NCBI GenBank assembly: GCA_001910725.1
Contig: MJGA01000004.1
Coordinates: 1,302,001 to 1,366,000, forward strand
Source: Phanerodontia chrysosporium
Lineage: Eukaryota > Basidiomycota > Agaricomycetes > Polyporales > Phanerochaetaceae
Reading direction: 5' to 3'
DNA length: 64,000 nt
Part shown: positions 44,677 to 64,000 of the stretch, piece after piece
Position numbering within the stretch: position 1 is the first letter of the stretch
How the letters are laid out: each line of letters starts with the position of its first letter
Made by a program: the position numbers and the translations under genes
The notes under the pieces: model-generated
What the model saw: only the letters and a program-made list of their open reading frames with translations
The model's database searches: none
Told to the model about the DNA's origin: nothing

Positions 44677-45294
44677 TGTCAGGGGTGTGATGGTGTAGCC
44701 CTATTTTTTACCTTGTTTTTGGCTATTTTTCTCAATTAATTCAATGGATGAGCAGCCCTCGCACTGTCTGGAGTCCTGACTGCCCACACTCAGCGCCTGA
44801 CCATTCAGCACCAGCACCCTGATGGCACATCACCCCTAGACACCAGCACATCCGCTGCATGCTCTGACACTGCCCGGATCACTGGTCTGCCTTGCAACCG
44901 GTTCCTGAATGGCCGAGGAGGCACTGTCATCCCCGATGACTCCCTTCGCTGAGACACGCCGAGCTGATCAGCCTGATGACACAGCCTCGGCCCGACGCAG
45001 CCTCGCTGGCTATGCTGAGCACTGCCCATCAGCTTATGTAATCGTACAGCCTGCCCTGAACTCCTGCAGTATATATAGGTAGCATCTCTCGCTCCTGTCC
45101 GTCATCTCGACCTCTTGGTCAATACGGACAGGTAAGCCCTCGTTTGTAAAGTAGAATAGCTCACTAATACACCTTGGTCAATACGGACAGCTGAACAAGT
45201 TGTACGTCGCTGCGTGACTCGCTCTGCCGTGCCTCGTCGGTCGTCCTCCCCATTTGCCCTCCCTCGTGCGGCGTTGAGCCTTTGCTCCGCAACA
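44677..45294 (+). repeat. 5' LTR of E3
   Basis: 618 nt, from tgtcaggggtgtgatgg to ctccgcaaca. Shorter than E1's 695 nt because part of the U3 repeat array is missing. TATA atatatag at 45071, predicted RNA start at about 45104. Confidence 0.85.
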
Positions 45295-45296
45295 TT

Positions 45297-45306
45297 AGGT
45301 CGAGAT
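45297..45306 (+). promoter_or_regulatory. Self-priming site of E3
   Basis: aggtcgagat, complementary to atctcgacct at 45104-45113 at the predicted RNA 5' end. Two nt from the LTR. Confidence 0.7.
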
Positions 45307-45426
45307 CCTTTGGGTGCCCTAGGCATTTTTCCCTATCGCTCCCCCCATACCACCGTTTAAAAAAGTTTATCCCCTCCGATTAAAGCGAGTACGTCATAGT
45401 CGAGCAGCCCGCTCACTCCGTACACG

Positions 45427-46026
45427 TTGCTAAGGCTTGCTTTTGCAGTGCCAAAAGACGTTCGTCGAAGCGCGGCCTCTCCGCCCCTGAACGCACCCGT
45501 CCTCAAGGATCACATCCCCCAGCGCATTTTCGACCGCCTCCAACGTCGTCGCAAGGCTGGCAACCCTGTCAAGTGGACTGACCGCAAAGTCAAAGCGGTC
45601 ATCAAGTACGTGTCCACGCTTCCCCAGCCTCCGCCCTCTGTCCCCTCCATCAACTGGACTGCCGTCCGCAAGGCTCGCGAAGCCGAACAACGCGTAGGTA
45701 ACCGCATCCGCGAACAACGCGTAGGCAACCGCATCCGCGAACAGCGCCAACGCGAGGCGCAAGAAGCCCAGGCCGCCGTAGCCGCCTCGTCCTCGAAGCT
45801 CAGTTTGGCAGAGCGCCTCAGCGCCGCCCCAACGTACGAGCCCATCGCCCGCAAGCCCATCGGTATCGACATCCCCAAGTTCTCCCCCACCGATCTCGTC
45901 GGCATCTTTACGCCTAAGCTCGACGCCACCATCAAGCGTCTCAAGGCCGTCGAGGAAGTTGATCTGTTCCACCTCGTCAACAGCGACCACGCACGTGGCG
46001 TCTGCCAGCTGATCGAGCGCCTCCAG
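45427..46026 (+). pseudogene. ORF-A of E3, first part (continues at 61835-62008)
   Basis: Frame runs from a likely 3' splice site (ttttgcag at 45449) with no ATG. Same protein as E1 ORF-A, including IGIDIPKFSPTDLVGIFTPK. Carries a 27-nt tandem duplication of VGNRIREQR at about 45691-45744. Joined to the right part across E2 it continues QQIRAEL in frame and ends AGYFE at 62008. Contains no Met codon. Interrupted by E2, so inactive. Confidence 0.8.
46022..46026. repeat. Target duplication of E2 (tccag), left
   Basis: tccag repeated at 61830-61834. Confidence 0.9.
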
Positions 46027-46626
46027 TGTCACAGTTTGTCGTCTCAACCCTTAGGGTTAGGGGCAGCAGGTGACAAAAGCGACTACTCCGAACTGTGACA
46101 TGCAGAAGCGCTGGAGTGACAGCCCTAGGCTCGGGGCCGGTCACGTGATACGGCGGTCACGTGATGCGCACACGTGCGGTATCCCAGGGTCACATGGTCG
46201 AAGGTCTAGAAGCAGGCAAGGGTCTGGAAGCGCTGAGACACTCCGGAATGGACTAGAAAGTCCTGGAGGTCTCTGGACAGGTCCGGACAGTGCTGGAACG
46301 TTCTGGAGGTTTCTGGGACATCATAGGAACATTTAGGAACGTGTAGGAGAATGTAGAAATGCCTGTAGGGCACTAGCCAATAGCGTAGTAGGTATTAGAT
46401 AGCTAGGACCCTGAACACCGGTCCCTGGGGACCTGGTGCACATGTATATAAACCCTGAGGGCTGGGGGTGCCTCCCCAGCTTCAATCTCATCGCATCTCA
46501 CCTCTCTAGTCTCTATACCTCGTTTTCAAGCTTGGCTACACCCTTTGTAGTCCAAGTAAACCTTTGCCAGTGAGTATTGCTGGTTGGTTTGGTGTATAGG
46601 CGCTAGGGCAGCGCATTTTTGTGATA
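46027..46626 (+). repeat. 5' LTR of E2
   Basis: 600 nt. Ends are tgtcac...gtgata, so the right terminus is TA, not CA. U3 holds TTAGGGTTAGGGG (46051-46063), tandem gtcacgtg E-boxes (46140-46166), a heat-shock-like array (46296-46313) and a TATA (46445-46450). Predicted RNA start at agcttcaatc, 46478. Confidence 0.92.
46296..46313 (+). promoter_or_regulatory. Heat-shock-element-like array in the E2 LTR
   Basis: GAAcgTTCtgGAGgtTTC: alternating five-base units with one imperfect unit. Repeated in the right LTR at 61499-61516. A shorter related array (38238-38250) occurs in the LTR relic. Function is inferred only. Confidence 0.5.
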
Positions 46627-46629
46627 GAA

Positions 46630-46639
46630 GATTGAAGCT
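46630..46639 (+). promoter_or_regulatory. Self-priming site of E2
   Basis: gattgaagct, three nt inside the LTR, complementary to agcttcaatc at 46478-46487, which lies 33 nt from the TATA box start. Tf1-type self-priming arrangement. Confidence 0.75.
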
Positions 46640-46932
46640 AGCCAACCTACTCCACCTTTGGTGGCCTAGGTTATTGCTTTGGGTTCTGGGGGCTTGTTTG
46701 AACAAGTGCTTTTGCGCTTTGTTCAGTTTTCTGCCGATCCACAGGCGTAAGTGGGCACTATAGTACCTTTTTAGGTACAGACAGGGGAACGTGGTGTAAC
46801 CCACCTCAGAGGGCTTTGCCTGCGGACGAGTAACCCCTGTTGTAGTGCTGGACCAAGGGTGTAATACCCTGTCCAACCAGTTTTAGCTGTGTGGCGTGGA
46901 AACCCACAGTAATACCCCTTTCTCTTCGTTGA

Positions 46933-47748
46933 GGGTTGGCTGACAGGAAAGCATTGTGCTTTGCCTGTGTGGAGAAGTTTTCTGGCTTGTGTACACAGGC
47001 TGACCCGTGTTTACTAGTGCCTAAAGCTGCTAAGAACCGTTTTGTCCTTGCTAAGGACGAGAGCTCTGGCAAACCCTTGCTTGAGCGCATCAAGATCTCG
47101 AACCTTCACTGCTTCAAAGACGTTGGGAAGCCACGCCCTGCGTACAAACCTCGCACTACACCCTACACCCCTGTCCCCGGTCGTCGTGAAAGGCTTGCTC
47201 GTGAAGCAGACTTGAACGACTTCAAGCACCAGCTTCAGCTCGAAGACTATCGCAACGAACAGCGCAAGCGCCGCCTACTTGATCGCATCGCGAACGCCCC
47301 TCCCCCTCTCCCCCTCATCAAGCGTATTGAACCTCCCCCTACTCCCCCTATCGAAGTCAAACCCATTCCCAAGGACCTTCGCTTTCACACCAACACTCAG
47401 GTCCATCAGCTGCGCGACTACGGACGAAAGTTCAACGGCGCCCTTAACCACTTGGGTCCGTTCTTTCAGAAGCTAGACGAGCAGCGTTTTCGAGTTGGGT
47501 TGACTGAACACGAGCTCTACATCTTGGGCTTGTTCAAGGAGAGGTTCGACAACATTCGCAAACACCTTCAGACCATCGTCGAGACGAAGGAGTACACCAC
47601 GAGGGAGTGGAAGAAGATTTCGAGGGATTTGAAGAAGGCAGGCGCACATAGCTTCGCTGAGCTTAAGCCACGCTTCGCCGAGCATTGCAGGGAGCTGATT
47701 CAGGAGTTGGGTGAAGATTGGTTGTTTTTGGAGAAGAACCTCGATTAG
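46933..47748 (+). CDS. ORF-A of E2, unknown product, no AUG
   Basis: Open from 46933 (after TGA) to TAG at 47748, about 270 codons, with no ATG in any position. A good 3' splice site (ctgacag at 46946) lies at the start. The product is basic and helical, with a Pro stretch (PPPLPLIKRIEPPPTPPIEV). Its last third aligns loosely with E1 ORF-A: IRKHLQTIVETKEYTTREWK against IRNELSRLAPTTTFKEWHQY, then SFAELKPRF against SFIGLRRNF. A near-cognate start (TTG 46936, or another) is required if it is made. Function unknown. Confidence 0.7.
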   Translation, partial: GLADRKALCFACVEKFSGLCTQADPCLLVPKAAKNRFVLAKDESSGKPLLERIKISNLHCFKDVGKPRPAYKPRTTPYTPVPGRRERLAREADLNDFKHQLQLEDYRNEQRKRRLLDRIANAPPPLPLIKRIEPPPTPPIEVKPIPKDLRFHTNTQVHQLRDYGRKFNGALNHLGPFFQKLDEQRFRVGLTEHELYILGLFKERFDNIRKHLQTIVETKEYTTREWKKISRDLKKAGAHSFAELKPRFAEHCRELIQELGEDWLFLEKNLD

Positions 47749-47777
47749 TTTTTGTATCTGCGCGTTTTTGAATCAAG

Positions 47778-49358
47778 ATGTCGCTCAATTCAAATCCTGT
47801 TGACTTTGGTTTGCGTTCTGCTTCGAGTTCAAGTGGCATGGACCCTTGGGGAGCGTTAGAACTTGGCTCTATAGCTGAGGGAGGCCCCACCCCAGTTTTG
47901 GCCGCTGCGCCGCTTTCGACCTCTTACGAAGAGTACAGCCAGTCATGGGTACAAGCCGCTCAGGAAGGACTGACTCCTGGCGACTTTAAGGCCCTTGTTG
48001 ACAGCCTGGGTAACTGGGTAAAGGCTGAGATAGCTCAAGTAAGGTCGGAAATGGGTTCAGAAGTCCTTCGCTTGAAGGAAGCCCTTCGCAAACGCAAAAC
48101 CGAGGCCAAAACACTTCAGGAGCAGATAGACACTCTTGAGCAGACTAGACAGCACTTGTCTGCGCAGATAGCAGAGGCTCAGAACCAAAATCGCATTTTG
48201 CAGAACGCTATGCAGGTGCTGAAGCAGGAGAACGAGAGCTTAAAAGTGTTGGTTCAGCAAGGCACTAGTGGAGGCAACGTTGGGTTGTCTCAGTCTTTGT
48301 TCCCTACCATGAAGGAGCCTGACACCTTTAATGGTGATAAGGCTAGCAAGCTGGATGACTGGCTCGAGTCGATGGCACTCTGGTTGCGCCACCGTGGCGT
48401 AATGGACGACGAAAAGAAGATAGAGATGGCGATGACTTACCTGCGAGGTTCAGCAAAGAAGGTCATGCAAGAGTACTTCGACAAGGTGGCAGACTCAAAG
48501 CCCCTTGGTACTTGGACCAACTTTGTGAACGAACTCCAGAAAGGATTCCAACAGACCGACAAGAAGGACAGGGCAAGGGCAGAGTTTGAGCAGCTGGTCA
48601 GCAAGAAAGGAACGAACGAAAAGACTTTCAACGAGTTTGCTGCTCGTTTCCGTTCGCTGGCTCGCCAAACTGGCTTCTCCAACGAAGAACTGTTGGTCAA
48701 AGCCTATGCCCATACCCCTCGTGCCGCTGCCGATGTACTGGCAGCCCGTGGTCGCGCTCAGTGGGCTACGACCTGGGATGGTTGGTTGAAGGATGTTCAG
48801 GAGATTCTGCAGGATCAACGTCTCTTGACGGGCACCGTACTTTCTGGACAGCCTCAGTCGTCGAAAGACCCTGACGCTATGGATGTCGACGCCTTGAAGA
48901 AGGGCTCAGCCCAGGGCAAAGGCAAGACAGTCAAAGTTCAGAAGGTTGCCATGTCGTTCGAGGAGGCGAAGAAGAAAGGCTGCTGCGCTCAGTGTGGAGG
49001 CAAAGGCCATATTGCCAAGGAGTGTCCATCGAAGAAGAACAACTCAGGTTCTTCGACGTCGTCGAGTAAAACCACCAATGCACTGGTGGCCAGTTCATCA
49101 AAGGCTTCGCCTTCAAAGGGAAAGGAGAAGGATAAGGGCTCTCGCCACACGAAGAACAGTGTGCGCGAGGTGTACGCCAGCGACTCGGAGAGATTCCAGG
49201 AGGTAGCCTCTGACGAGGAGTCGAGCTCGGACAGCTCAGAAGAAGAAGATACCCCCAAGACCAAGCAAAAGAAGAAGTCGTCTTCGAAGGAGAAGGCGCA
49301 GAAGATTAACCGCATGGTGTTCTCAGACGATGAGGATTTTCTGCAGGGACCGATGTAG
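47778..49358 (+). CDS. gag: E2 Gag
   Basis: 526 codons. The ATG at 47778 is the first ATG after the predicted RNA start. Central coiled coil (LQEQIDTLEQTRQHLSAQIA), the retrotransposon gag helical domain (FNGDKASKLDDWLESMALWL), CCHC zinc knuckle CAQCGGKGHIAKEC and an acidic Ser tail. Ends with TAG at 49356-49358. Confidence 0.95.
   Translation: MSLNSNPVDFGLRSASSSSGMDPWGALELGSIAEGGPTPVLAAAPLSTSYEEYSQSWVQAAQEGLTPGDFKALVDSLGNWVKAEIAQVRSEMGSEVLRLKEALRKRKTEAKTLQEQIDTLEQTRQHLSAQIAEAQNQNRILQNAMQVLKQENESLKVLVQQGTSGGNVGLSQSLFPTMKEPDTFNGDKASKLDDWLESMALWLRHRGVMDDEKKIEMAMTYLRGSAKKVMQEYFDKVADSKPLGTWTNFVNELQKGFQQTDKKDRARAEFEQLVSKKGTNEKTFNEFAARFRSLARQTGFSNEELLVKAYAHTPRAAADVLAARGRAQWATTWDGWLKDVQEILQDQRLLTGTVLSGQPQSSKDPDAMDVDALKKGSAQGKGKTVKVQKVAMSFEEAKKKGCCAQCGGKGHIAKECPSKKNNSGSSTSSSKTTNALVASSSKASPSKGKEKDKGSRHTKNSVREVYASDSERFQEVASDEESSSDSSEEEDTPKTKQKKKSSSKEKAQKINRMVFSDDEDFLQGPM
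49334..49340 (+). promoter_or_regulatory. Candidate -1 frameshift site, E2 gag-pol
   Basis: G GAT TTT read in the gag frame, 15 nt before the gag stop. The pol frame (-1) opens directly here after TGA at 49331-49333. GGAUUUU is the shifty heptamer used by a dianthovirus. Confidence 0.65.
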
Positions 49359-51035
49359 AGTCTGCGACATCTGGTCCGTTTTTAGATTTTCTTTACCCTC
49401 CCGACTCAGTAGAATGTATTAGATCAGTTTTGGAATCGAGAAAAGTCTCTAGTTTACCCTCTAAATCGAGCTTTATCGTTCCAGTAACTTTGAGTCAGGG
49501 TAAGGAAATCAGAGTGCAGACTACCGCGCTGGTTGATTCGGGGGCCTATGCTGTGTTCATTAGCCATCGCTTCGTCAAGAAGCATAAGCTGAAGACGAAC
49601 CAGCTGGCCAGGGAGATACGCGTTTATAACACAGATGGCTCCAGGAACAAGTGTGGCAGTATTGAGGAGTATGCTTGGCTCGACATAGCCGTAGGGGACC
49701 ATGTCTCCAGACAAGCATGCCTCATTACAGATCTGGGTGGAAAGGACATGTTCCTCGGCTTTAGCTACTTGAAGAAGCATAATCCTGAGATAGATTGGGA
49801 TAAGGGCGAGTGGAAGTACTCCAGATGCCCAGATTCTTGTCGCTTTACCAGCCACAAGGCTCAAGTAGCACAAGCAGAGCTCGAAGAACCTATGGATGAG
49901 GACTTCGAGGAGGAAGAAGAGGAGCCTTGGCTTCAGTGGGTCGACCCTTCCACTCCAGATGGCTGCGTTTTGGCAGTAACCTGCCGGAAGATCGCAGCGA
50001 TGTGCAGTATTCGTTCGCTGGAGGGAATCGAGGGCTGGGAGCAGCTTGTCCCTGCACAGTATCAGGACTACGGGGACGTGTTTTCGAAGCGTGCAAGCGA
50101 ACGGCTACCCGTACGAAAGCCTTACGACCACGCTGTCGAGTTCATCGATGGAGCTACCCTACCTCAATCAGCTCGTAATTACTCGCTGTCGCCAGAAGAG
50201 AGGAATTCTCTGGACGAGTGGATTCAGGAGAATCTCGCCAAGGGATACATCAGACCGAGTAAATCCCCGCTGGCAGCACCAGTCTTTTTCGTGAAGAAGA
50301 AGGATGGTTCATTGCGCTTGGTGCAAGATTACAGAAAGCTGAACGAAGTCGTCAAGAAAGACCGCTTCCCTATACCCAAGATCTCAGACCTTATAGATCG
50401 ACTATCTAAGGCCAGTATATACACCAAGATTGACCTTAGATGGGGGTATAACAACGTCAGAATCAAGGAAGGAGACGAGTGGAAGCTGGCCTTCATCACA
50501 CCCTTTGATTTATACGAACCTACAGTGATGTTCTTCGGCCTCAGCAATGCACCAGCAACCTTTCAGCGCATGATGAACCATATTCTCGATGATCTGATTC
50601 GAGAAGGGCATGTCATGGTCTACTTAGACGACATTCTCATCTTCATGAATGACTTGGACCACCATCGGCGATTAGTTCGCGAGGTATTGCAGTGACTACG
50701 CGACAACGACCTGTTCGCTAAGCCAGAAAAATGCTTCTTCGAGACGGATAGCATTGAATACCTCGGAATGATCATCAGCAAGGGGTCGGTTCAGATGGAT
50801 CCATCGAAGGTAGATGGCGTTTTATCTTGGCCCATACCCAAAAGGGTCAAAGATGTCCAGGCTTTCCTGGGTTTTGCCAACTTCTACCGACGGTTTATTC
50901 GAGACTTTGGCAAGGTTGTTCGCCCATTGTCAGAGCTTACCCGCAAAGGCAAAGAGTGGGAATGGGGGCCTGAGCAGCAGGATGCCTTCGAGACGCTCAA
51001 GAGAGCGTTCACTACTGCGCCTATTCTCAAGATTC
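49341..51035 (+). pseudogene. pol: E2 Pol, first part: protease and reverse transcriptase
   Basis: Pol frame continues from the slip site with no needed ATG. Aspartic protease DSGAYAVFI; RT with YIRPSKSPLAAPVFFVKKKD and the catalytic YLDD (MVYLDDILIFMND); RNase H starts. TGA at 50693-50695 replaces an expected Arg codon (EVLQ-stop-LRDNDLFAKPE), then the frame stays open to the E1 insertion at 51035. Continues at 58739. Confidence 0.9.
51031..51035. repeat. Target duplication of E1 (gattc), left
   Basis: gattc repeated at 58734-58738, in E2 pol. Confidence 0.9.
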
Positions 51036-51730
51036 TGTCGCGGAGCGAAGGCTCAACGCTACACGAGGGAGCACGAATGGGGAGGTCGACGAGATGGCGC
51101 AGCGGAGCGGGTCACGCAGCGACGAACGGTTTGTGCAACTGTCCGTATTGACCAAGTTGTATTAGTGTTTGTATGCTACAGTACAAACGACGGGCTTACC
51201 TGTCCGTATTGACCAAGAGGTCGAGATGACGGACAGGAGCGAGGAGTGCTACTCTTATATACTACAGGAGTTCAGGGCAGGCTGTACGATTACATAAGCT
51301 AATGGGCAGTGCTCGACATAGCCGACGAGGCTGCGACGCGGGCTGCGCGGCGAGGCTGTGCTGGGGCTATGTCACAAGGCTGTATCAGCTGGCAGTGTCT
51401 CGAGGCTGCGTCGGGCCGAGGCTGTGTCATCAGGCTGATCAGCTCGGCGTGTCTCGGTGAGGGGAGTCATCAGGGATGACAGTGCCTCCTTGGCGATCCG
51501 GGGAACCGGTTGCAAGGCAGACCGGTGATCCGGGCGGTGTCTGAGCGCGCAGCGGGATGCGCTGGCGTCTAGGGGTGATGCGCTATCAGGGCGCTGGCGC
51601 TGAGTGGCCAGGCGCTGAGTGTGGGCGGCTAGGACTCCAGACGGCGCGAGGGCTGCTCGCCCGTTGGATTAATCGAGGAAAATAGCCAAAAATCGGCGAA
51701 AAATAGGGCAGCACCGTCACATCCGTGACA
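51036..51730 (-). repeat. 3' LTR of E1
   Basis: 695 nt, sense strand tgtcacggatg...gctccgcgaca. Differs from the 5' LTR at tens of positions, concentrated in the U5 end. Confidence 0.93.
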
Positions 51731-51733
51731 TTA

Positions 51734-51743
51734 CCCCCCTCCT
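51734..51743 (-). promoter_or_regulatory. Polypurine tract of E1
   Basis: aggagggggg then taa before the LTR (read on the minus strand). Confidence 0.7.
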
Positions 51744-51768
51744 AAAACCGAGCGTCCTCGCGAGGTCG

Positions 51769-54700
51769 TCAGATGTGGCGCCCCTCTTCCCAATCGAGAT
51801 CGGCCTTAGCGCGATCGGAGGCAGGAAGGAGAGAGACGTCGACTTCGGTGACGAACGGGCGAAAAGAGGCGGCAAGGGCTTCGAAGGCGGTGGCAGCGAG
51901 CTTGCGGGGCACTTCCGGATTTTTGCGATGGAATTTGTTGACTAGGGCCTTGGCGTGCTTGAGGTTGTCTGCCTTTTCCCACGTGTCGCCGACTTGGCCG
52001 TAGCCTTTCCAGCGGACCTTATACTGCAGTTGGCGGCGGTATATGCGGCTGTCGAGGATCTTCTCGACGACGTATTCTTCTTCGCCGGCAACCTTGACAG
52101 GTTTGGGAGGCAGAGGCTTCTCGACGCCCTGATCGTGCCACGGGCTGAGGCGGTTGACGTGGAAAACCGGGTGGATTTTCAGCCAGCTCGGGAGCTCGAG
52201 CCGATAGTCCAGATCGCCGATCTTTTCCAGAACCTTAAACGGGCCCAGCTGGCGAGGGCCGAGCTTGGGCGAAGGCTGATCGATGCTGAGGTCCTTCGTG
52301 CTGAGCCAAACCTGATCGCCGACTTTAAAGGAGTGGGCGCGTTTCTTTGCGGCCTCGTACTCTTCTTTCATGCGGGCTTTGGTTAGGCGCAGGGCAGCTT
52401 CGGCCTCTTTGCGAACGTGAGCCATGCGATCCAGGCGCTCATCGAGGGCGGGGACCTTGGTGTGTTTTCCGGCCGGGATCGTGAAGTCCGGCGTGTAGCC
52501 GTAAATAATCTCGAAGGGCGTGCGCTCGGTAGCACTGGACACGTGTGAGTTCAGGGTGAACTCGGCCATCGGGAGCCAATCGACCCAGTCGTCTTGGCGC
52601 TGGGAGACGAAGAGACGCAGGAATTTCTCGACTTCCTGGTTCTTGCGCTCGACCTTGCCGTTGCCTTCGGGGTGATATGCCGTGGTGAGACCAGTAGCGA
52701 TGCCGAGGCGCTTGTATAGCGCTCGCATGTACTGAGCTGCAAACTGTGGCCCGCGATCGGAGAAGATCTTGCGCGGGAGTCCGTGGAGGCGAAAGATGTC
52801 GGTATAATGGACGTCGCCCATGCCGGCAGCGGTGATCGTCGAGTCGACCGGCACAAGGTGGCACTGATCAGAATAGTGGTCCACGTAGACCGCGATCGAG
52901 TCCTTCTTGGTCTTGGCGTCACGTGGGAGCTGCGTGATGAGATCCACGCCGACGTGTTCCCAAGGCCCTGAAGGGACGTCGTGGGGCTGTAGGGTGGCTT
53001 TCGGATGCGGGGCGGACTTGTACCGTTGGCATTGATCGCAGCCGAGCACGTAGCGGCTGACGTCGGCGGAGATGCGCGGCCACCAATAGTACCGAGAGAC
53101 CAACTCGAGGGTGGTGTGCTTCCCAGGGTGTCCGGCAGTCGGCGCGTCATGGCAAGACTTGATGACGTCGTTGCGCAGCGCGGCACTGTTCGGCACGTAG
53201 ACTTTCCCATGGTAGTACAGAAGGCCGTTGTCTTCTTCCCATTCGAGAACGCCGTTGCGCAGCTTGCGGGGCCCCTTGGTCCGGAGAACCTGCAGAGCGT
53301 CTGCGACTTCCTTTTCCTTTTCGGAGCAGTCGCGAATGCACTTCTCGAGGGGGGAGGGGTTCGCGAAGACCGCCGTGGCGGCTATTTTAAACAGCTCTGG
53401 CTTCAATACTACCTGCGAGCGATTGTCTTCTTCGTCCGAGACGTGCAGCGAGGAGGGCCGGGAGAGCGGATCAGCGAGGAGATGCGTTTTGCCGGGGCAG
53501 TGGATGATGCGGAAGTCATACTCGGCGAGATAGGAGGCCCATCGGGCTTGTCACCGTGTGAGATTCTGCGCAGTCTTCCAATACTGGAGATTCTGATGAT
53601 TGGTCCAGATCTCAAAAGGCTCCGGGAGACCTTCGAGGAACTGGCGCCAGTCCTTGAGAGCTTCGATGATTGCAAGCATCTCACGGTCCCAGATCTCGTA
53701 GTTCCGCTCGGCGGGGCTCATGGTCTGCGAGCGATACGCGATTGGATGCCAGAGACCATCTTCAGGGTTGCGTTGGGCTATGACTCCTCCGGTGGCGTAG
53801 CCAGAAGCATCGGTCTCAACGCGAGTTGGCCGATCAATGCTCCACATGGCGAGCACGGGCTGAGTCGTGAAAGCGCGCTTGAGCGTCTCGAAGGCTTCTG
53901 CCTGTGCGGGACCCCAATTAAACGGAGTATCCTTCTTCGTCAGATCGTGCAGCGGGCGGCAGATCTTTGAGAAGTCTTTGATGAAACGGCGATAGAAGTT
54001 GGCGAACCCGACAAAGCCTCGTACGTCTTTGAGGTTCTTCGGGGTCGGCCACTCGGCTACTGCCTTAACCTTGCCGGGATCCATGCCGACTTGTCCTTCG
54101 CTGATGAGGAGCCCAAGATACTCGATCTCCGAGCGCTCGAACTCGCACTTTTCGGGCCGAAGGTACAGATCGTATTTAGCGAGGCGTGCCAGGACCTCGT
54201 GAACAATCTTCCGATGCGAAGCAAGATCGTTCGACCAGATGAGGATGTCGTCGAGGTAAACTGCGACCTTGCTCTCGGCGATGAGATCGGCGAAGATGTG
54301 GTTCATAAGGGCCTGGAACGTGGCGGGGCTGTTGCACAGACCGAAGTACATGACTCTGGGCTCGAAGAGACCGCGGTTGGTGACGAAGGCGGCTTTCCAC
54401 TCGTCACCTTCCTTAATCCGGACGTTGTTGTAGCCCCAACGGACGTCGAACTTGGTGAAGATTTTAGCGCCCTGGAGCTTCCCGATGATGTCGGAGGCGA
54501 GGGGAAGGGGGTAGCGATTCTTCACAGTGATGTCGTTGAGCTTGCGGTAATCCTGGATGAACCGGAGCTTGCCGTCCTTTTTCTTGATGAAGAAGACAGG
54601 GGAAGCGATCGGAGACTTGCTGGGGACGATGTAGCCCTTGGCGAGTGCGTCGTCGATGAACCGCTGTAGTTCCTCATTCTCGATTGGGGACATGGGGTAG

Positions 54701-55533
54701 ACCTTCGATTTGATCGATGCCGGAGCGTCCGGGACGAGATCTATCGCGTGGTCCCAGGGCTGATGCTTCGGAAGGCGGTGCGATTCTTCTTTGGAGAACA
54801 CCTTCTTGTGTCGGTGGTACTCCTTGGGGACCAGCTCTTCAAACGTCTTGGCGTACTTCTCGCGGTTGGCTTCGACAGCGATCGCTTGCGAGTAAGTGTA
54901 GCCGGCGAGGATCCAGACTTCGTCCTTGGCGTCCTCTACAATGCCTGTTCGAAGCCATTCACGGCGCTCGGAGCGATTGGCGTCAATCTGGTGGATACCG
55001 AAAACCGGGGTGTCCTCAGCTCCGCCGCGGAGCTGAAACTGGACATCTCCCGTTTCCCAGTCGATGTTCGGATTCCATTTCTTGAGCCACGGAAGTCCGA
55101 GGATGACGTTCTCGGGACCAATGTTCGTGACAAGAAACTCCTCCTTAAACGTGTATGAACCGACAGTCAGCTGGAGTCTGGCGCGATGCGTGATAGACCC
55201 TGCTTCGTTCCTAGTTCCGTCGATGTTGTACAGTGTGATTTCCCTTTTGAGCGGTACCGTGAGAATCTTGTGTTGCTTACAGAAATCCTCGTGGATGAAC
55301 AACGAAGTCGCACCGGAGTCAATCATTGCAGGTGTGCGAATAGTCTTATTGATCCCGGTGACCTTTATTGGTACACGATAGTGATTCGAAAAGGGGTCTA
55401 ATACTGATATGGTACATGAGCGGATGGTATCGGAAGTGTCCTGTGGTTCTACAGAAGGCGCCGGAGTTGAATCCGGGCTTGACGAAACGGGGACCGACGA
55501 TGCGGCGTCACTCCGGCCCCTTAAGCAAAACCC
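51769..55533 (-). pseudogene. pol: E1 Pol: protease, RT, RNase H, integrase, chromodomain
   Basis: -1 frame from the slip site at 55527-55533. Protease with MIDSGATSLFI; RT with YRKLNDITVKNRYPLPLASD and YLDDILIWSND; RNase H; integrase H-H-C-C (HDAPTAGHPGKHTT ... CDQCQRYK) and DDE parts (ISDRGPQF is here FSDRGPQF); C-terminal chromodomain VEKILDSRIYRRQLQYKVRW, GDTWEKADNLKHA. A single TGA at 53553-53551 lies in LTR-stop-QARWASY, where an Arg codon is expected; the frame is open on both sides. About 1250 codons overall. Confidence 0.92.
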
Positions 55534-56771
55534 CCGAGCTGCTTTTGTATCAGAGCCAGCTGATCATGGAGGGCGGCGAGCGCGGCGGCTTGGTCGTGAG
55601 ACGAGCTGCCAGAAGACGAGGAGGCTGGAGACGAGGAGTCCTGTGACGAGGTATCCGAAGACGAGGCGCGGACAGCGGCAGTAGCGGAGGCGGTTCTCGG
55701 CTTGCCCTCGAGGCGGGCACGACAGACGCGGGACCAGTGACCCTTTTTGCCGCAGTGGTTGCAAACCGAGTCGCGGTGCACGGGGTCCGTGGACTTGTGG
55801 GACTTCGAGCCGCAGACCTTGCAGCGATCCTTCATGACGGCGTCGAACTGGCGCTTGAGATCCGTGCCGGTGAGACACTTAAACAGCTCGTCGATGTTCG
55901 CGGCGTCGATGTCCATCGCGTTCGGGTCGCGGAAGGCGCGCGCCAACGAGCTAGCCGGAGTCGAGGACGTCTTGCCTTGCTGTGCCAAGAGATCCTGCGA
56001 GAGCTTGTCCTTTGACCGATCGACGGCGAAACCAGCGTTCTTGAGCTCGTCGTACGTCTCGGGGCCTTTGCCGGTGCTGGGGTTGACCATGTACGAGATC
56101 CGCTCGAGGTAGTCCTTGTTAAACTTCGTCCGTAGCCGGGCTGCCAGGTCTTCCGGAGTGAGCTTCGTGCGGCCGGCGAGGGCTTGGAACTCCGCAAAGA
56201 ACTCTGCGAACCGACGGTTGCCTTGCGTACATGCCTGCAGCTTGCTGAGAGCCTCGGCCTTCTCGTCCATGGGCTCGAACCGGTTCTTGAAAGCCTCCCA
56301 GAACGTAGCGCGAGAGCCGTCGAATATCTGAGTGCCGTCTGCCGCTTGCTCGATGTACTGCCGGGCCCATTCGGCCGCTTCATTCTGCATGAAGGAGAGA
56401 GCGCCGACGATCCACTTCTGGCCGTCTACCAAGATCTTGCCGGATTCGGGGTCCCGCTGGAGGTTGCCGTTGACGTCGCGCTTGCCGAATTTCTCCGGCT
56501 GTCCATCGGCGTAGATGCGATAGGCAGCGCGGAAGAGATGGGCCGTGTCCGAACCTTTTCCTTTGAATGGGACGGGCTTTTCGACGAAGGGGAGCTCCTT
56601 GTTGGCGTTGACCGTTGCGTTGACCGTTGACCGATTGGCGCCAATAGTTTGGGCCAGAGTGTTAATCGTGTTTGTGAGCTGCGTCATCGCCTGGGCCATT
56701 TGCAGGAGAGCAGCGGAGATGGGGTCGGGGGGAGCCGGGCCAGGAGGCGCTCCGTCGGGAGTGCTCGACAT
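55521..56771 (-). CDS. gag: E1 Gag
   Basis: 416 codons from ATG 56771, the first ATG after the predicted RNA start. Contains VPFKGKGSDTAHLFRAAYRI, the gag helical domain (FWEAFKNRFEPMDEKAEALS) and a zinc knuckle CNHCGKKGHWSRVC, preceded by a CKVCGSKSH half-knuckle. Ends in a Ser-rich tail and TAA at 55523-55521. Confidence 0.95.
   Translation of the reverse strand: MSSTPDGAPPGPAPPDPISAALLQMAQAMTQLTNTINTLAQTIGANRSTVNATVNANKELPFVEKPVPFKGKGSDTAHLFRAAYRIYADGQPEKFGKRDVNGNLQRDPESGKILVDGQKWIVGALSFMQNEAAEWARQYIEQAADGTQIFDGSRATFWEAFKNRFEPMDEKAEALSKLQACTQGNRRFAEFFAEFQALAGRTKLTPEDLAARLRTKFNKDYLERISYMVNPSTGKGPETYDELKNAGFAVDRSKDKLSQDLLAQQGKTSSTPASSLARAFRDPNAMDIDAANIDELFKCLTGTDLKRQFDAVMKDRCKVCGSKSHKSTDPVHRDSVCNHCGKKGHWSRVCRARLEGKPRTASATAAVRASSSDTSSQDSSSPASSSSGSSSHDQAAALAALHDQLALIQKQLGGFA
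55527..55533 (-). promoter_or_regulatory. Candidate -1 frameshift site, E1 gag-pol
   Basis: GGGTTTT, in frame G GGT TTT GCT TAA, a classical shifty heptamer a few bases before the gag stop. The -1 frame runs into pol without a stop. Confidence 0.8.
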
Positions 56772-57195
56772 ATTGGGGGGACGGGGAGTGTTGGCTCCTG
56801 ATTGAGCGCGGGAGAGATTAAACGGTGAGGGAGCGGGTTCGTGGTCGGAGAGGACGGAGCCGAGCGATGTCTCGGGGGACGAGTGGTGGCTGCTGTCCGG
56901 GGGACTGTGATCGGGAGTATTCGGAGTAGTGGCAGAGGCGCGGGCGAATTCTAGCCGTTGCGCGAAATGAGGGCGTTCGAACTGTGTTTCTCGGTTGCTG
57001 GGCGGAACCGGGAGTAGCGGAGGGGCAGTCTCTCGATAAGGGCAGGGCTGCTGACTGCACTCCCTGGCTTCTCGAGACCCGTTATTCTCCTCGACGTGGA
57101 GATCAGCAGGAGCAGTGACACCGTTCTCTGTAGTTCGCCCAAAGAAGTGCGGGCAGTTCGAACAATCGAAATCCAGAGCGACAGAAATGTATTAT

Positions 57196-57885
57196 TTAAT
57201 CAAAGTAGCCAGCCCGGTACACGATGTCTAATTCTCCCACGATGCGGCGGAAGTTGCGCCTTAAACCGATAAACGAAATGTCACCGATCTGAGCAAGTCC
57301 AAGCTCGTACTGGTGCCACTCCTTAAACGTGGTCGTGGGGGCAAGGCGGCTGAGCTCGTTGCGGATCTGCCGAAGACGCTCGAGTAGCTGGCAGACCCCG
57401 CGCGCACGGTCGCTGTTGACGAGGTGGAATAAGTCGACTTCCTCGACGGCCTTGAGACGCTTGATGGTCGCGTCGAGCTTGGGCGTGAAGATGCCGACGA
57501 GGTCGGTGGGGGAGTACTTGGGGATGTCGATACCGATGGGCTTGCGGGCGATAGGCTCGTACGTCGGGGCGGCGCTGAGGCGCTCTGCCAAACTGAGCTT
57601 GGAGGAGGAGGCGGCTACAGCAGCCTGGGCTTCTTGCGCCTCTCGTTGGCGCTGCTCGCGGATGCGGTTGCCTACGCGTTGTTCGGCCTCACGAGCCTCG
57701 CGAACGGCAGTCCAGTTGATGGAGGGGACGGAGGGTGGAGGCTGGGGGAGCGTGGACACGTACTTGATGACCGCCTTGATTTTGCGGTCCGTCCACTTGA
57801 CGGGGTTACCGGCCTCGCGACGACGTTGGAGGTGGTCGAAGATGCGCTGGGGGATGTGGTCCTTGAGCCGGACGTCTTTCGGCAC
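57196..57885 (-). CDS. ORF-A of E1, unknown product, no AUG
   Basis: About 229 codons, from the vicinity of a 3' splice site (gctttgcag|tgc) to TAA. There is no ATG on the sense strand anywhere in it. Basic, Arg/Lys/Ala-rich. Motifs VKWTDRKIKAVIKYVSTLPQ, IGIDIPKYSPTDLVGIFTPK, TTFKEWHQYELGLAQIGDIS. The same protein occurs in E3 and E4 and a distant version in E2. GTG at 57885 or another near-cognate codon could start it. Function unknown; positive charge suggests nucleic acid binding (inference). Confidence 0.75.
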   Translation of the reverse strand: MPKDVRLKDHIPQRIFDHLQRRREAGNPVKWTDRKIKAVIKYVSTLPQPPPSVPSINWTAVREAREAEQRVGNRIREQRQREAQEAQAAVAASSSKLSLAERLSAAPTYEPIARKPIGIDIPKYSPTDLVGIFTPKLDATIKRLKAVEEVDLFHLVNSDRARGVCQLLERLRQIRNELSRLAPTTTFKEWHQYELGLAQIGDISFIGLRRNFRRIVGELDIVYRAGYFD

Positions 57886-58026
57886 TGCAAAGCAAGGGCC
57901 TTAGCAACGTGTACGGAGTGAGCAGGCTGCTCGACTACCACGTACTCGCTTTAAACGGAGGGAATAAACTTTTTAAACGGTATTTGGGGGAGCGGTAGGG
58001 AAAGAATTGCCTAAGGCACCCAAGAG

Positions 58027-58036
58027 ATCTCGACCT
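58027..58036 (-). promoter_or_regulatory. Self-priming site of E1
   Basis: aggtcgagat on the minus strand, two nt inside the LTR. Complementary to atctcgacct, at 58230-58221 in the LTR just downstream of tatataag. Confidence 0.75.
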
Positions 58037-58038
58037 AA

Positions 58039-58733
58039 TGTCGCGGAGCTAGGGCTCAACGCTACACGAGGGAGGGCGGATGGGGATGACGACGACGAGG
58101 TGCAGCGGAGCGAGTCACGCGGCGACGCACAACTTATACAGCTGTCCGTATTGACCAAGTTCTATTAGTGTTTGTATGCTACAATACAAGTGACGGGCTT
58201 ACCTGTCCGTATTGACCAAGAGGTCGAGATGACGGACAGGAGCGAGGGGAGCTACCCTTATATACTACAGTACTCTAGGGCAGGCTGTACGATTACCTAA
58301 GCTGATGGGCAGTGCTTGGCATAGCCAGCGAGGCTGCGACACGGGCTGCGCGGCGAGGCTGTGCGGGGGCTATGTCACGAGGCTGTGTCAGCTGGCAGTG
58401 TCTCGAGGCTGCGTCGGGCCGAGGCTGTGTCATCGGGCTGATCAGCTCGGCGTGTCTCGGTGAGGGGAGTCATCAGGGATGACAGTGCCTCCTCGGCGAT
58501 CCGGGGAACCGGTTGCGAGGCAGACCGGTGATCCGGGCGGTGTCTGAGCGCGCAGCGGGATGCGCTGGCGTCTAGGGGTGATGCGCCATCAGGGCGCTGG
58601 CGCTGCATGGCCAGGTGCTGAGCGTGGGTGGCTAGGACTCCAGACGGCGCGAGGGCTGCTCGCCCGTTGGATTAATCGAGGAAAATAGCCAAAAATCGGC
58701 GAAAAATAGGGCAGCACCGTCACATCCGTGACA
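58039..58733 (-). repeat. 5' LTR of E1
   Basis: 695 nt. Sense order: U3, TATA, predicted RNA start at 58230, a 16-18-nt repeat (cttggtcaatacggacag) occurring twice with a gtaagc after the first copy, then gctccgcgaca. Confidence 0.93.
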
Positions 58734-58738
58734 GATTC
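58734..58738. repeat. Target duplication of E1 (gattc), right
   Basis: Second copy of 51031-51035. Confidence 0.9.
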
Positions 58739-61194
58739 CAGACGACGAGCACCCTTTTAGGCTCGAATGTGATTCGTCAGACTTTGCTACGGGGGCTGTA
58801 CTTGAGCAACTGGGTGAAGATGGCCTTTGGCACCCTGTCGCATTTTACTCCAAGGCGCTAGGCGTACACGAGCGCAACTACGAGATATACGACAAGGAGA
58901 TGCTAGCCATCATCCGCGCGCTGAAGGAATGGCGCCACCACTTGGAGGGACACCCTCTACCGTTCGAAATATGGTCAGATCACCAGAATTTGACCTATTT
59001 CCGCAAGGCACAAGACTTAACGCGACGTCAAGCACGATGGAGTCTTTTCCTCACACGTTTCCACTTCAAGTTGGAGCACAAGCCTGGAAAGACAATGAAG
59101 CGGGCTGATCCAATGTCCAGGAGGCCAGATCATGAATTGGGGGTGGATTGCGACAATCGTGAAAAAGTCCTTTTGAAGCCAGAATATTTCGCGATTCGAG
59201 CCATGCAACCAACCCATTCATCGATAGTGGACGATAGCAAACTGCTAGAAAGGATCAGAAAAGCCCTGCTGGACGACGAAGTCACCAAGTCGTACAAAGA
59301 CCTGATGTTGAAAGGACCAAGAGAGTTCGGGAAGGACTTAGCGGAATGGCACCTCGAGGATGGGCTACTACTGCACCGAGGCAAGGTGTATGTGCCCAAG
59401 GACGACAAGATTAGGGCAGATCTACTCAAGTTACACCACGACTTCCCTGGGGCTGGACACCCTGGACGATGGAAGACGTTGGAGTTGCTGTCGCGCAATT
59501 ACTGGTGGCCAGGAATGTCAGTTTACGTCAAGAAGTACGTCGCAGATTGCGAAGTCTGCCAGTCGCATAAAAACGTCAACCAGAAGCCTGCTGGCCTGCT
59601 ACAACCGAACGAGGTTCCGTCGGAACCCTGGGAGATAATCTCGTGCGATATGATCACGGACTTGCCTGAGTCGGACGGTTACAACGCTATCTTCGTAGTC
59701 GTTTGCCGCTTAACCAAGCGAGCACATTTCCTCCCCATCACCAAGGAGTTTTCAGCCAAGGATCTGGGAAATTTGCTCTATGAGCGTGTTTGGCCTTTGC
59801 ACGGCCTACCCAAACAGATCATTTCGGATAGAGGAACGCAGTTTGCCGCGAAACTCTTCCAGGAATGGTGCAGACTCTTGGGGATCAAGTCAGCGATGAC
59901 TACAGCGTTTCACCCTCAGGCAGACGGTCAGACTGAGCGAGTTAATCAGTCATTGGAGCAGTATCTGCGCTGCTACACAAGCTTTAGACAGGACGACTGG
60001 GCGTACCTTTTGCCCTCTGCCGAGTTTGCGTACAACAACCAGGCGCATGAAAGCACCAAGAACTCGCCATTCTTCGTCGAATATGGCCGTCATCCACGCA
60101 TGTTCCCAGAGTAGGACCGTGTTACAAGGTTGTCAGAACTGGACGACTGGACGAAGCTCAGACAGGAGGCCCAAGATCAGGCGAAAGCCGCGCTCGTGCT
60201 GGCTGCAGAGCGAATGAAGTGGTATTACGACCAGGGTAAATCAGAACCCTTGTTCAAGGTCGGAGACCGTGTTTGGCTTGACGCAAAGGATCTGAACCTT
60301 CGGGTTCCCTCTAAGAAACTGGCACCAAAGCGAGTAGGCCCTTACGAGATCGTAGAGCAGCTGGGACCGGTCACCTTCAAGCTGAAGTTACCAGCCCACG
60401 TGAAGATTCACCCGGTCTTCCACGCAAGCAAGCTCACGAAGCACGTCGAGGATGAGGTTGCCAATCGCACGCGCAAACCCCTACCACCCATTCGTGTGGG
60501 TGATGACGAGGAGTACGAGGTCGAGCAGATCGTAGATGCACAGCCAAACTCTAAAGGCCGTGTCATGTACCGAGTACGGTGGAGAGGCTACGACGAGCAT
60601 AGCGACACATGGGAGTACTTGCCCAATCTCAAGCACGCTATGGCGAAGGTCAAACAATTCCACAAGAAATACCCAGATGCGCCGAAAGCAATTTCCCTTC
60701 TGCAACGCCACCACAATGAGGAGGATGAGTTTTTTGTGCGCGAACTCGCGCTATTCCAATCTTGGGGAGCAGACGACCAGTTCGAGGTCGAGCTCATGAA
60801 CAAGGACGCAAAACTCCCCTCACGTGGCTCGCCAGAAAGCGCAGGGTTGGATCTTTTCATCACGGAAGACCTTACGCTCAAGCCCCATGATCGCAAGCTA
60901 GCGCCAACTGGCCTTCGAATGTGTACTCCACCAGGTACCTACGCTCGAGTCGCACCACGGAGTGGCCTCAGCCTCAGAGGCATCGACATAGGAGCAGGCG
61001 TTATTGACCGAGATTATCGAGGAGAGCTCAAAATTCTACTCATCAACAACTCGCCCGACACCTTTACATTCCACAAGGGTGATCGTGTCGCTCAACTCGT
61101 GCTCGAAAGAATCTCCTACGCCGAACCAACTCCAGTCTCTCGCCTCGACTCAACCATTCGCAGCAGCGATGGTTTTGGCTCCACTGGTATTTAG
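58739..61194 (+). pseudogene. pol: E2 Pol, second part: RNase H, integrase, chromodomain, dUTPase
   Basis: In frame with 51035 across the E1 TSD (KI-PDDEHPFRLECDSS). RNase H to about 59100, integrase with H-H-C-C (LHHDFPGAGHPGRWKT ... CEVCQSH) and the DDE core (CDMITDLP, ISDRGTQFAAKLFQEW), a TAG at 60112-60114 after HPRMFPE, then a chromodomain (YEVEQIVDA ... MYRVRWRGYDEHSDTWEYLP). The C-terminus is a full dUTPase (60781-61191). Normal for Ty3/Gypsy chromoviruses apart from the last domain. Confidence 0.92.
60781..61191 (+). other. dUTPase domain at the end of E2 Pol
   Basis: All five trimeric-dUTPase motifs in order: ESAGLDLF, PRSGLSLRG, GVIDRDYRGELKILLINNS (catalytic Asp), GDRVAQLVLERI and the Arg-containing RSSDGFGSTGI. 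It would keep dUTP low during reverse transcription. Similar domains have been described in LTR elements of Phanerochaete chrysosporium, as I recall. Confidence 0.9.
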
Positions 61195-61215
61195 GCTTCA
61201 CCAGGAGGTTCAGCT

Positions 61216-61229
61216 AGAATTGGGGGTAA
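61216..61229 (+). promoter_or_regulatory. Polypurine tract of E2
   Basis: agaattgggggtaa immediately before the 3' LTR. The gggggtaa|tg arrangement is the same in E1. Confidence 0.7.
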
Positions 61230-61829
61230 TGTCACAGTTTTTCGTCTCAACCCTTAGGGTTAGGGGCAGCAGGTGACAAAAGCGACTACTCCGAACTGTG
61301 ACATGCAGAAGCGCTGGAGTGACAGCCCTAGGCTCGGGGCCGGTCACGTGATACGGCGGTCACGTGATGCGCACACGTGCGGTATCCCAGGGTCACATGG
61401 TCGAAGGTCTAGAAGCAGGCAAGGGTCTGGAAGCGCTGAGACACTCCGGAATGGACTAGAAAGTCCTGGAGGTCTCTGGACAGGTCCGGACAGTGCTGGA
61501 ACGTTCTGGAGGTTTCTGGGACATCATAGGAACATTTAGGAACGTGTAGGAGAATGTAGAAATGCCTGTAGGGCACTAGCCAATAGCGTAGTAGGTATTA
61601 GATAGCTAGGACCCTGAACACCGGTCCCTGGGGACCTGGTGCACATGTATATAAACCCTGAGGGCTGGGGGTGCCTCCCCAGCTTCAATCTCATCGCATC
61701 TCACCTCTCTAGTCTCTATACCTCGTTTTCAAGCTTGGCTACACCCTTTGTAGTCCAAGTAAACCTTTGCCAGTGAGTATTGCTGGTTGGTTTGGTGTAT
61801 AGGCGCTAGGGCAGCGCATTTTTGTGATA
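61230..61829 (+). repeat. 3' LTR of E2
   Basis: 600 nt, matching 46027-46626 except for one base that I saw near its start. Confidence 0.93.
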
Positions 61830-62421: not shown

Positions 62422-63117
62422 TGTCACGGATGTGACGGCGCAGCCCTATTTTTCGCCGATTTTTGGCTATTTTCCTCGATTAATCCAACGGACGAGCAGC
62501 CCTCGCGCCGTCTGGAGTCCTAGCCGCCCACACTCAGCGCCTGGCCACCCAGCGCCAGCGCCCTGATGGCGCATCACCCCTAGACGCCAGCGCATCCCGC
62601 TGCGCGCTCAAGACACTGCTCGGATCACCGGTCTGCCTTGCAACCGGTTCCCCGGATCGCCGAGGAGGCACTGTCATCCCTAATGACTCCTCTCGCCGAG
62701 ACACGCCGAGCTGATCAGCCTGATGACACAGCCTCAGCCCGACGCAGCCTCGAGACACTGCCAGCTGACACAGCCTCGTGACATAGCCCCCGCACAGCCT
62801 CGCCGCGCAGCCCGCGTCGCAGCCTCGCTGGCTATGCCAAGCACTGCCCATCAGCTTAGGTAATCGTACAGCCTGCCCTAGAGTACTGTAGTATATAAGA
62901 GTAGCACTCCTCGCTCCTGTCCGTCATCTCGACCTCTTGGTCAATACGGACAGGTAAGCCCGATGTTTGTATTGTAGTTACAGTGCTAATATAACCTTGG
63001 TCAATACGGACAGCTGTACAAGTTTGTTCGTCGCCGCGTGATACGCTCCGCTGCGCCTCGTCGTCGACCTCCCCATTCGCCCTCCCTCGTGTAGCGTTGA
63101 GCCTCTGCTCCGCGACA
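62422..63117 (+). repeat. 5' LTR of E4
   Basis: 696 nt, tgtcacggatgtgacgg to gctccgcgaca. TATA 62892, predicted RNA start 62926. Direct repeats of cttggtcaatacggacag at 62936-62953 and 62996-63013. Confidence 0.92.
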
Positions 63118-63119
63118 TT

Positions 63120-63129
63120 AGGTCGAGAT
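63120..63129 (+). promoter_or_regulatory. Self-priming site of E4
   Basis: aggtcgagat, complementary to 62926-62935. Confidence 0.75.
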
Positions 63130-63248
63130 CCTTTGGGTGCCCTAGGCATTTTTCCCTACCGCTCCCCCAAACCCCGTTTAAAAAAAGTTTATCCCCACCG
63201 ATTAAAGCGAGTACGTCGTAGTCGAGCAGCCCGCTCACTCCGTGCACG

Positions 63249-63959
63249 TTGCTGAGGCTTGCATTTGCAGTGCCGAAAGACGTCCAGCTCAAGGACCACA
63301 TCCCCCAGCGCATCTTCGACCGCCTCCAACGTCGTCGCGAGGCCGGTAATCCTGTCAAGTGGACGGACCGCAAAGTCAAGGCGGTCGTCAAATACGTCTC
63401 CACGCTCCCGACGCCTCTGCCCTCCGTCCCCTCCATCAATTGGACTGCCGTCTGCAAAGCCCGTGAAGCTGAACAACGCGTAGGCAACCGCATCCGCGAG
63501 CAATGCCAGCGCGAAGCCCAAGAAGCCCAGGCCGCCGTAGCCGCCTCGTCCTCGAAGCTCAGTTTGGCAGAGCGCCTCAGCGCCGCCCCAACGTACGAGC
63601 CCATCGCCCGCAAGCCCATCGGCATCGACATCCCCAAGTACTCCCCCACCGACCTCATCGGCATCTTCACGCCCAAGCTCGACGCCACCATCAAGCGTCT
63701 CAAGGCCATCGAGGAAGTCGACCTGCTCCACATCGTCAACAGCGACCACGCCCACCACTTTCACCTCCTGTTCGAGCGACTTCGCCAAATCCGCGCCGAG
63801 CTCAGCCGTCTCGCCCCCATCACCACGTTTAAGGAGTGGCACCAATACGAGCTCGGTCTCACTCAAATTGGTGACATTTCGTTCATCGGTTTAAGGCGAA
63901 ACTTCTGCCGTATCGTGGGACAGTTGAACATTGTGCACGAGGCTGGCTATTTTGATTAG
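63249..63959 (+). CDS. ORF-A of E4
   Basis: Open to TAG at 63957-63959. Same protein as in E1 and E3, with TTFKEWHQYELGLTQIGDIS at the C-terminal part. The frame opens after a TAG; no in-frame ATG. One out-of-frame ATG occurs at 63503. Confidence 0.75.
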   Translation: MLRLAFAVPKDVQLKDHIPQRIFDRLQRRREAGNPVKWTDRKVKAVVKYVSTLPTPLPSVPSINWTAVCKAREAEQRVGNRIREQCQREAQEAQAAVAASSSKLSLAERLSAAPTYEPIARKPIGIDIPKYSPTDLIGIFTPKLDATIKRLKAIEEVDLLHIVNSDHAHHFHLLFERLRQIRAELSRLAPITTFKEWHQYELGLTQIGDISFIGLRRNFCRIVGQLNIVHEAGYFD

Positions 63960-64000
63960 TTTATAAATACACTTGCTGTCGCTCTGGATTTCGACTGTTC

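What the first reader, a model, noticed from the sequence alone, without database searches (positions are those of the whole stretch)
46478..47777. E2: 1.3-kb retrotransposon leader with no ATG in any frame
From the predicted RNA start (46478) to the gag ATG (47778) I found no ATG on the sense strand, while CAT occurs about 13 times in the same 1300 nt. About 20 ATG are expected by chance. Yet the leader contains an open ORF of about 270 codons. The simplest reading is selection so that scanning ribosomes reach the gag AUG, with ORF-A started at a non-AUG codon. I know of no description of this.
Basis: partly seen in the sequence, partly recalled or inferred. Interest (0 to 1): 0.93.

Follow-up and report, generated by a model that had tools for sequence, protein, structure and literature searches.

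The report
Start codon assembled by RNA splicing
A fungal jumping element seems to keep its long RNA leader free of start codons so that unspliced RNA makes its capsid protein, while splicing the same RNA stitches an A to a TG and so creates the start codon of a second, conserved protein of unknown function.

Summary
In detail: no ATG from 46442 to 47778; 0 in the 1300-nt leader against a shuffle mean of 9.7 (0 of 2000 shuffles reach 0). Forty-two of 43 copies examined share it. A second chromovirus family in the window (E3, minus strand) has a 1459-nt ATG-free leader with a homologous ORF-A. ORF-A is under purifying selection (dN/dS 0.05-0.18), so it is a real protein.

The non-AUG start proposed for ORF-A is probably wrong. 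In both families the first ORF-A codon is split by predicted splice sites: E2 GCCA|GTGAGT...CTGAC...CTAG|TGCCTAAA, E3 GCGA|GTACGT...CTAAG...GCAG|TGCCGAAA. Splicing would join A to TG and make AUG. Shuffled leaders give such a junction in 12 of 3000 (E2) and 8 of 3000 (E3) trials. Best reading: unspliced, AUG-free RNA is the gag mRNA; spliced RNA gains one AUG and makes ORF-A. A separate intron in the E1/E3 LTR tolerates ATG (at least 120 of 297 places), as a removed stretch should. No transcript was available, so splicing is inferred. ORF-A's function is unknown; a Rev/CERV-like role is a guess.

The parts
46027..46626 (+). E2 5' LTR, 600 bp, TGTCAC...GTGATA; its 3' partner is 61230-61829; target site duplication TCCAG
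46445..46452 (+). TATA box (TATATAAA) 26-33 nt before the predicted RNA start
   Evidence: read from the sequence
46478..46488 (+). predicted RNA 5' end; 11 nt complementary to 46629-46639 (self-primer)
46629..46639 (+). predicted self-priming site just after the LTR; lies inside the predicted intron, so the spliced RNA would lack it
46570..47017 (+). predicted retained/alternative intron of E2 (448 nt): donor GCCA|GTGAGT (in the LTR), branch-like CTGAC, acceptor CTAG|TG
   Evidence: donor ranks first in the leader, acceptor is the only YAG with a branch-like motif in the stretch scanned (scoring weights from recall)
46569..46569 (+). last base of exon 1: A of the AUG made by splicing
47018..47748 (+). 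exon 2: TG of the AUG, then ORF-A (M)PKAAKNRF..., 242 codons after the start, stop TAG 47746-47748, no Met codon
47778..49358 (+). E2 gag, first ATG of the unspliced RNA; Retrotrans_gag, weak zinc knuckle match
49430..51035 (+). E2 pol, first part (protease, RT), interrupted by the E3 insertion; ORFs with RNase H, integrase, chromodomain and dUTPase follow at 58900-61194
58039..58733 (-). E3 5' LTR, 695 bp; partner 51036-51730; target site duplication GATTC
58221..58230 (-). E3 predicted RNA 5' end; 10 nt complementary to 58036-58027
58142..58202 (-). E3 intron I (61 nt, in the LTR): ACAG|GTAAGC...CTAAT...ACAG; tolerates ATG in many copies
57885..57945 (-). E3 intron II (61 nt): GCGA|GTACGT...CTAAG...GCAG|TG; exon before it ends in A57946
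57196..57884 (-). E3 exon: TG of the AUG, then ORF-A (M)PKDVRLKDH..., no Met codon
56772..57176 (-). E3 Gag N-terminal extension, ATG-free, in the gag frame, conserved as protein; conserved CTG at 57176 as possible start
55524..56771 (-). E3 gag from its first ATG

Best explanation
E2 is a Ty3/gypsy chromovirus whose single primary transcript serves two uses chosen by splicing. Unspliced RNA has no AUG before gag, so scanning ribosomes start at the gag AUG; the same RNA keeps the priming site and is the replication template. Splicing from the donor in the LTR to the acceptor before ORF-A joins A to TG, creates the only upstream AUG and yields ORF-A, a conserved protein; the spliced E2 RNA loses the priming site and so should not be copied. 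Shown by sequence: the AUG desert, ORF-A conservation, splice signals, and the in-frame AUG that they would make in two diverged families. Inferred: that splicing occurs, that it is partial, and that gag is read from unspliced RNA. ORF-A acting on the fate of the unspliced RNA (as CERV or Rev do) is a guess.
For: ATG 0 in 1300 (E2) and 0 in 1459 nt (E3); 0 of 2000 shuffles reach 0 in each. 42 of 43 E2 copies examined without leader ATG. ORF-A dN/dS 0.05-0.18 in nine E1/E3 comparisons and 0.09-0.16 in six E2 comparisons. Splice-made in-frame AUG in both families; 12 of 3000 and 8 of 3000 shuffles give one with the top two donors. In the genome, donor A|GTACGT in 44 of 44 places where it was left free; acceptor CAG|TG in 98 of 99, one CAG|TA (by eye), while the tract before it varies in length and letters; joint pattern 106 places, control 0. 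ATG tolerated in intron I: at least 120 of 297; in 12 loci held, 4 ATG in 599 nt of recognised intron I against 1 in 11785 nt of the rest (L062 lacks intron I and that of L068 was not recognised and counts with the rest). The E2 intron itself is ATG-free (15 of 2000 shuffles reach 0), as expected if it stays in the gag mRNA.
Against: No transcript, RACE or ribosome data. No genomic match to either spliced junction was found (up to 2 mismatches); this fits E2, whose spliced RNA lacks the priming site, but E3's spliced RNA would keep it, so there it needs poor packaging, rare splicing, or no splicing. GTG stands at the same codon unspliced, so a GTG start would fit the ORF-A alignments as well. 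A second good E2 donor at 46747 would give no AUG, and with only the single best donor E3 gives no AUG, because that donor is intron I's. Four of the 100 listed intron II copies carry an ATG (by eye). Copies are related, so counts are not independent. E3 Gag extends upstream of its first AUG, so 'gag starts at the first AUG' is incomplete for E3.
Confidence: 0.72

Rival explanations
1. Splicing makes the ORF-A AUG, but gag is translated from the same spliced RNA by leaky scanning past that AUG or by reinitiation after the ORF-A stop (29 nt before the gag AUG in E2); the unspliced RNA is only the genome.
For: Short ORF-A to gag distance in E2. Leaky scanning would also demand few AUG inside ORF-A.
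Against: The E2 intron would then be free to hold ATG but has none (15 of 2000 shuffles reach 0), whereas intron I of E1/E3 does hold ATG. Reinitiation would not select against AUG inside ORF-A. In E3 the frame relation between ORF-A and the gag extension differs among copies.
Confidence: 0.15
2. One reading: no splicing; ORF-A starts at a non-AUG codon (GTG at 47017 in the unspliced RNA, or another) and the desert lets scanning ribosomes reach gag.
For: GTG lies at the conserved first codon in both families; relatives start there; spliced junctions were not found in the genome.
Against: It leaves the donor, branch and acceptor signals and their A|TG phase in two families unexplained, and the near-invariance of CAG after a variable tract.
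Confidence: 0.1
3. Composition or chance: the ATG-free run is a by-product of codon usage and recent expansion of one copy.
For: E2 copies are 98-99% alike over the full-length matches, so they count as few events; E3 ORF-A alone lacks ATG in 919 of 2000 synonymous shuffles.
Against: Whole-leader shuffles never reach zero, CAT is common, and the second family repeats it.
Confidence: 0.03

Closest known systems
Cer1 and its CERV protein (C. elegans Ty3/gypsy element; PMC10309623, passages seen, among them part of the abstract)
   Same: Accessory protein made from a spliced mRNA while unspliced RNA makes Gag; a legend mentions a splice acceptor before the predicted initiator ATG
   Different: CERV exons 1-3 are in the gag frame; no AUG desert or splice-made AUG appears in the passages seen; homology to ORF-A was not tested
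Ogre (550-codon ORF upstream of gag) and Diaspora (PMC1142308, passages seen)
   Same: Long region before gag, in Ogre with an ORF of unknown function
   Different: That paper (2005) says that no intron upstream of gag had been reported in any LTR retroelement; here introns are predicted exactly there
Retrosat2 / RIRE3 / RIRE8 ORF0 (PMC3485330, passages seen)
   Same: Extra ORF upstream of gag-pol, function unknown
   Different: Plant elements; the words intron and start codon do not occur in the held main text; homology not tested
BARE and EVADE copia elements (PMC3735527 outline with abstract; PMC8892269 passages)
   Same: Splicing divides the RNA of one element into pools with different uses
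   Different: There splicing yields a Gag mRNA; here it would yield a different protein and create its AUG
Tf1/sushi-type chromoviruses (recalled; self-priming in general is named in PMC2864245, passages seen)
   Same: Chromodomain integrase; RNA 5' end complementary to a site next to the LTR
   Different: Tf1 has, as I recall, one ORF and no leader ORF or intron
Additional ORF of unknown function and dUTPase in fungal Gypsy elements (PMC2864245, passages and a figure legend seen)
   Same: Fungal elements with an extra ORF; some with a dUTPase, as E2 has
   Different: The passages do not say where the extra ORF lies, and mention no splicing

Membership tests
Ty3/gypsy chromovirus | protease-RT-RNase H-integrase order | tested here: met
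   (E2 in two pieces around E3; E3 in two ORFs)
Ty3/gypsy chromovirus | chromodomain at integrase C terminus | tested here: met
   Chromo E 5.1e-14 in E3, 2.4e-12 in E2
Ty3/gypsy chromovirus | paired LTRs and short target site duplication | tested here: met
   (TCCAG; GATTC)
Tf1/sushi group | RNA 5' end complementary to the priming site next to the LTR | tested here: met
   11 nt in E2, 10 nt in E3; the RNA 5' end itself is predicted, not mapped
Tf1/sushi group | RT falls inside the Tf1/sushi clade | not tested
   no tree was built
Tf1/sushi group | primer made by cleavage of the RNA 5' end | not testable with these tools
   needs biochemistry
Element with spliced-mRNA regulator (Cer1 CERV, Rev) | protein made only from spliced RNA | tested here: inconclusive
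   splice sites and phase predicted, no RNA data
Element with spliced-mRNA regulator (Cer1 CERV, Rev) | needed for export of unspliced RNA | not testable with these tools
   needs experiment
Ogre/Retrosat2-like upstream-ORF elements | conserved ORF between LTR and gag | tested here: met
   dN/dS
Ogre/Retrosat2-like upstream-ORF elements | homologous upstream protein | not tested
   plant proteins were not compared

The most novel reading that the evidence does not exclude
A conserved two-state leader in fungal chromoviruses: splicing assembles the start codon of ORF-A, an AUG-free retained intron lets unspliced RNA make Gag, and ORF-A feeds back on splicing, export or packaging of the unspliced RNA, a fungal counterpart of Rev or CERV. 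In the E3 lineage Gag itself begins at a non-AUG codon upstream of its first AUG.
Probability: 0.25. Interest if true: 0.88.

Novelty: new variant of a known kind. Interest (0 to 1): 0.72.

Why it matters
It would give LTR retroelements a very economical switch: one splice both makes the start codon of an accessory protein and (in E2) removes that RNA from replication, while purging AUG from 1.3-1.5 kb keeps the unspliced RNA readable. It is testable with one RT-PCR, it would explain leader ORFs without ATG that gene finders miss, and it bears on how elements balance translation against replication. In the listings of ten literature searches I saw no such case in an LTR element; I opened six of the listed papers, in abstract or passages only, and most subscription papers are not in that library.

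Full report
What is there. E2 (46027-61829) is a chromovirus with 600-bp LTRs, gag, pol interrupted by E3, chromodomain and a terminal dUTPase. E2 sits inside an element of family E1, and E3, a complete-looking member of that same family (E1 leaders are 86-88% identical to it), sits inside E2 on the minus strand with its own duplication GATTC. The host is an unnamed 39-Mb genome; three of the 14 Gag relatives are named from Phanerochaete sordida, so a related basidiomycete is likely, but this was not tested.

The desert. 46478-47777 has no ATG. Shuffles that keep dinucleotides average 9.7 (minimum 2 in 2000), and ATG is the only absent trinucleotide; for E3's 1459-nt leader the mean is 8.7 (minimum 2), and ATG is again the only absent one. 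These are the two longest ATG gaps in the window, one per strand. In the genome, 42 of 43 E2-family loci held and aligned lack leader ATG; one search lists 128 matching stretches in all, so 43 is a part. The copies are 98-99% alike, so this is little independent evidence. Family E1/E3 is the independent replicate: its ORF-A is 24-26% identical to those of E2 and P0003. In six copies followed from RNA start to gag ATG (E3, L061 with L070, L068, L071, L072, L073) there is no ATG; L062 and the E1 leader at 45104, held only in part, have none in that part; L066, L067 and L069 have one, inside intron I; the E1 leader at 62926 has one in intron I and one in ORF-A.

RNA 5' ends. The first 11 nt from 46478 are complementary to 46629-46639 right after the LTR, and 10 nt from 58230 in E3 to 58036-58027. 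That is the Tf1 type of self-priming (recalled) and places both starts 26-34 nt after a TATA box. The starts are predicted, not mapped.

ORF-A is real. dN/dS is 0.05-0.18 between E3 and nine other loci (two of them near-identical), 0.09-0.16 between E2 and six others. Relatives exist in public data: two for E2 and ten for E3; nine of those ten are shown starting MP, and P0003 starts MPP. P0002 is shown as VPK, so GTG at this place is what unspliced DNA reads; the M of the others may come from the caller's habit.

The splice-made AUG. In E2 the top-ranked donor of the leader is GCCA|GTGAGT (A46569) and the only YAG with a branch-like motif is CTAG|TG (T47018); joined they read GCC ATG CCT AAA, the first codons of ORF-A. 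In E3 the two best donors are ACAG|GTAAGC (intron I) and GCGA|GTACGT (intron II), and the two branch-supported acceptors are theirs; intron II joins GCG ATG CCG AAA. Dinucleotide shuffles of the same stretches yield an in-frame, open, AUG-making pair with the top two donors in 12 of 3000 (E2) and 8 of 3000 (E3); with only the top donor E3 does not score, because that donor is intron I's. Across the genome the donor, with its twelve bases left free, is A|GTACGT in 44 of 44 places; the acceptor, left free, is CAG|TG in 98 of 99, after a tract that varies in length. Both patterns are anchored on nearby bases, so strongly decayed copies are not seen.

Why unspliced RNA is the gag mRNA. Intron I is a natural control: same leader, same family, but it is variable and holds ATG in at least 120 of 297 places (both LTRs of an element count; a lower bound, since the pattern misses ATG close to the donor). 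In the 12 loci held, recognised intron I has 4 ATG in 599 nt and the rest 1 in 11785 nt. If all predicted introns were removed from the gag mRNA, intron II and the E2 intron would be equally free; intron II has ATG in 4 of 100 listed copies (by eye; 106 in all) and the E2 intron has none (15 of 2000 shuffles reach 0). The simplest reading is that intron I is removed from gag mRNA and the others stay. Reinitiation after ORF-A would not select against AUG inside it.

Consequence for replication. The E2 intron starts inside the LTR and removes the priming site, so spliced E2 RNA should not be copied; no spliced junction is found in the genome. E3's spliced RNA would keep its priming site, and no junction is found either, which is the main result against the model for E3. 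Intron I is missing, with exact borders, in nine of the ten hits of a pattern for intron-less LTRs (the tenth, ending GGTG, may be a donor variant); two of the nine lie 6.9 kb apart around the element of L062, as paired LTRs would. But an 18-nt direct repeat at its borders would allow slippage to do the same.

A second surprise. In E3 the 135 codons between 57176 and the first gag ATG (56771) are conserved as protein in the gag frame (dN/dS 0.04-0.32 in eight comparisons), resemble the N terminus of other Gags (C-x-x-QPCP in P0020, and in P0026, by eye) and hold no ATG. A CTG with G at -3 and G at +4 is kept in 8 of 8 copies. A non-AUG start of Gag is the likely reading there.

Limits. No RNA or protein data exist here; ORF-A's fold and function are open.

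Noticed in passing
57176-56772 (-): E3 Gag has a conserved N-terminal extension without any ATG; a conserved CTG in good context may be the start codon.
   Followed up: partly
58202-58142 (-), and 297 places in the genome: The E1/E3 LTR carries a variable 60-nt intron-like stretch (GTAAGC...CTAAT...CAG) flanked by an 18-nt direct repeat; nine LTR hits lack it exactly.
   Followed up: partly
60130-61194 (+): E2 ends its pol with a dUTPase after the chromodomain, as reported for some basidiomycete elements (PMC2864245 passages).
   Followed up: no
L063, L064, L065 and about ten further places: A group of E2 copies has ORF-A broken into two frames near its proline-rich middle, yet these copies multiplied, which hints that ORF-A may act in trans.
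   Followed up: no
45104-46026, 46027-61829, 51036-58733: Nested insertions: E2 inside an E1-family element (in its ORF-A), E3 inside E2 pol.
   Followed up: partly
50693-50695 (+): The E2 RT frame of this copy has one in-frame TGA.
   Followed up: no
62926-63960 (+): A further E1-family leader with ORF-A, one ATG in intron I and one in ORF-A.
   Followed up: partly
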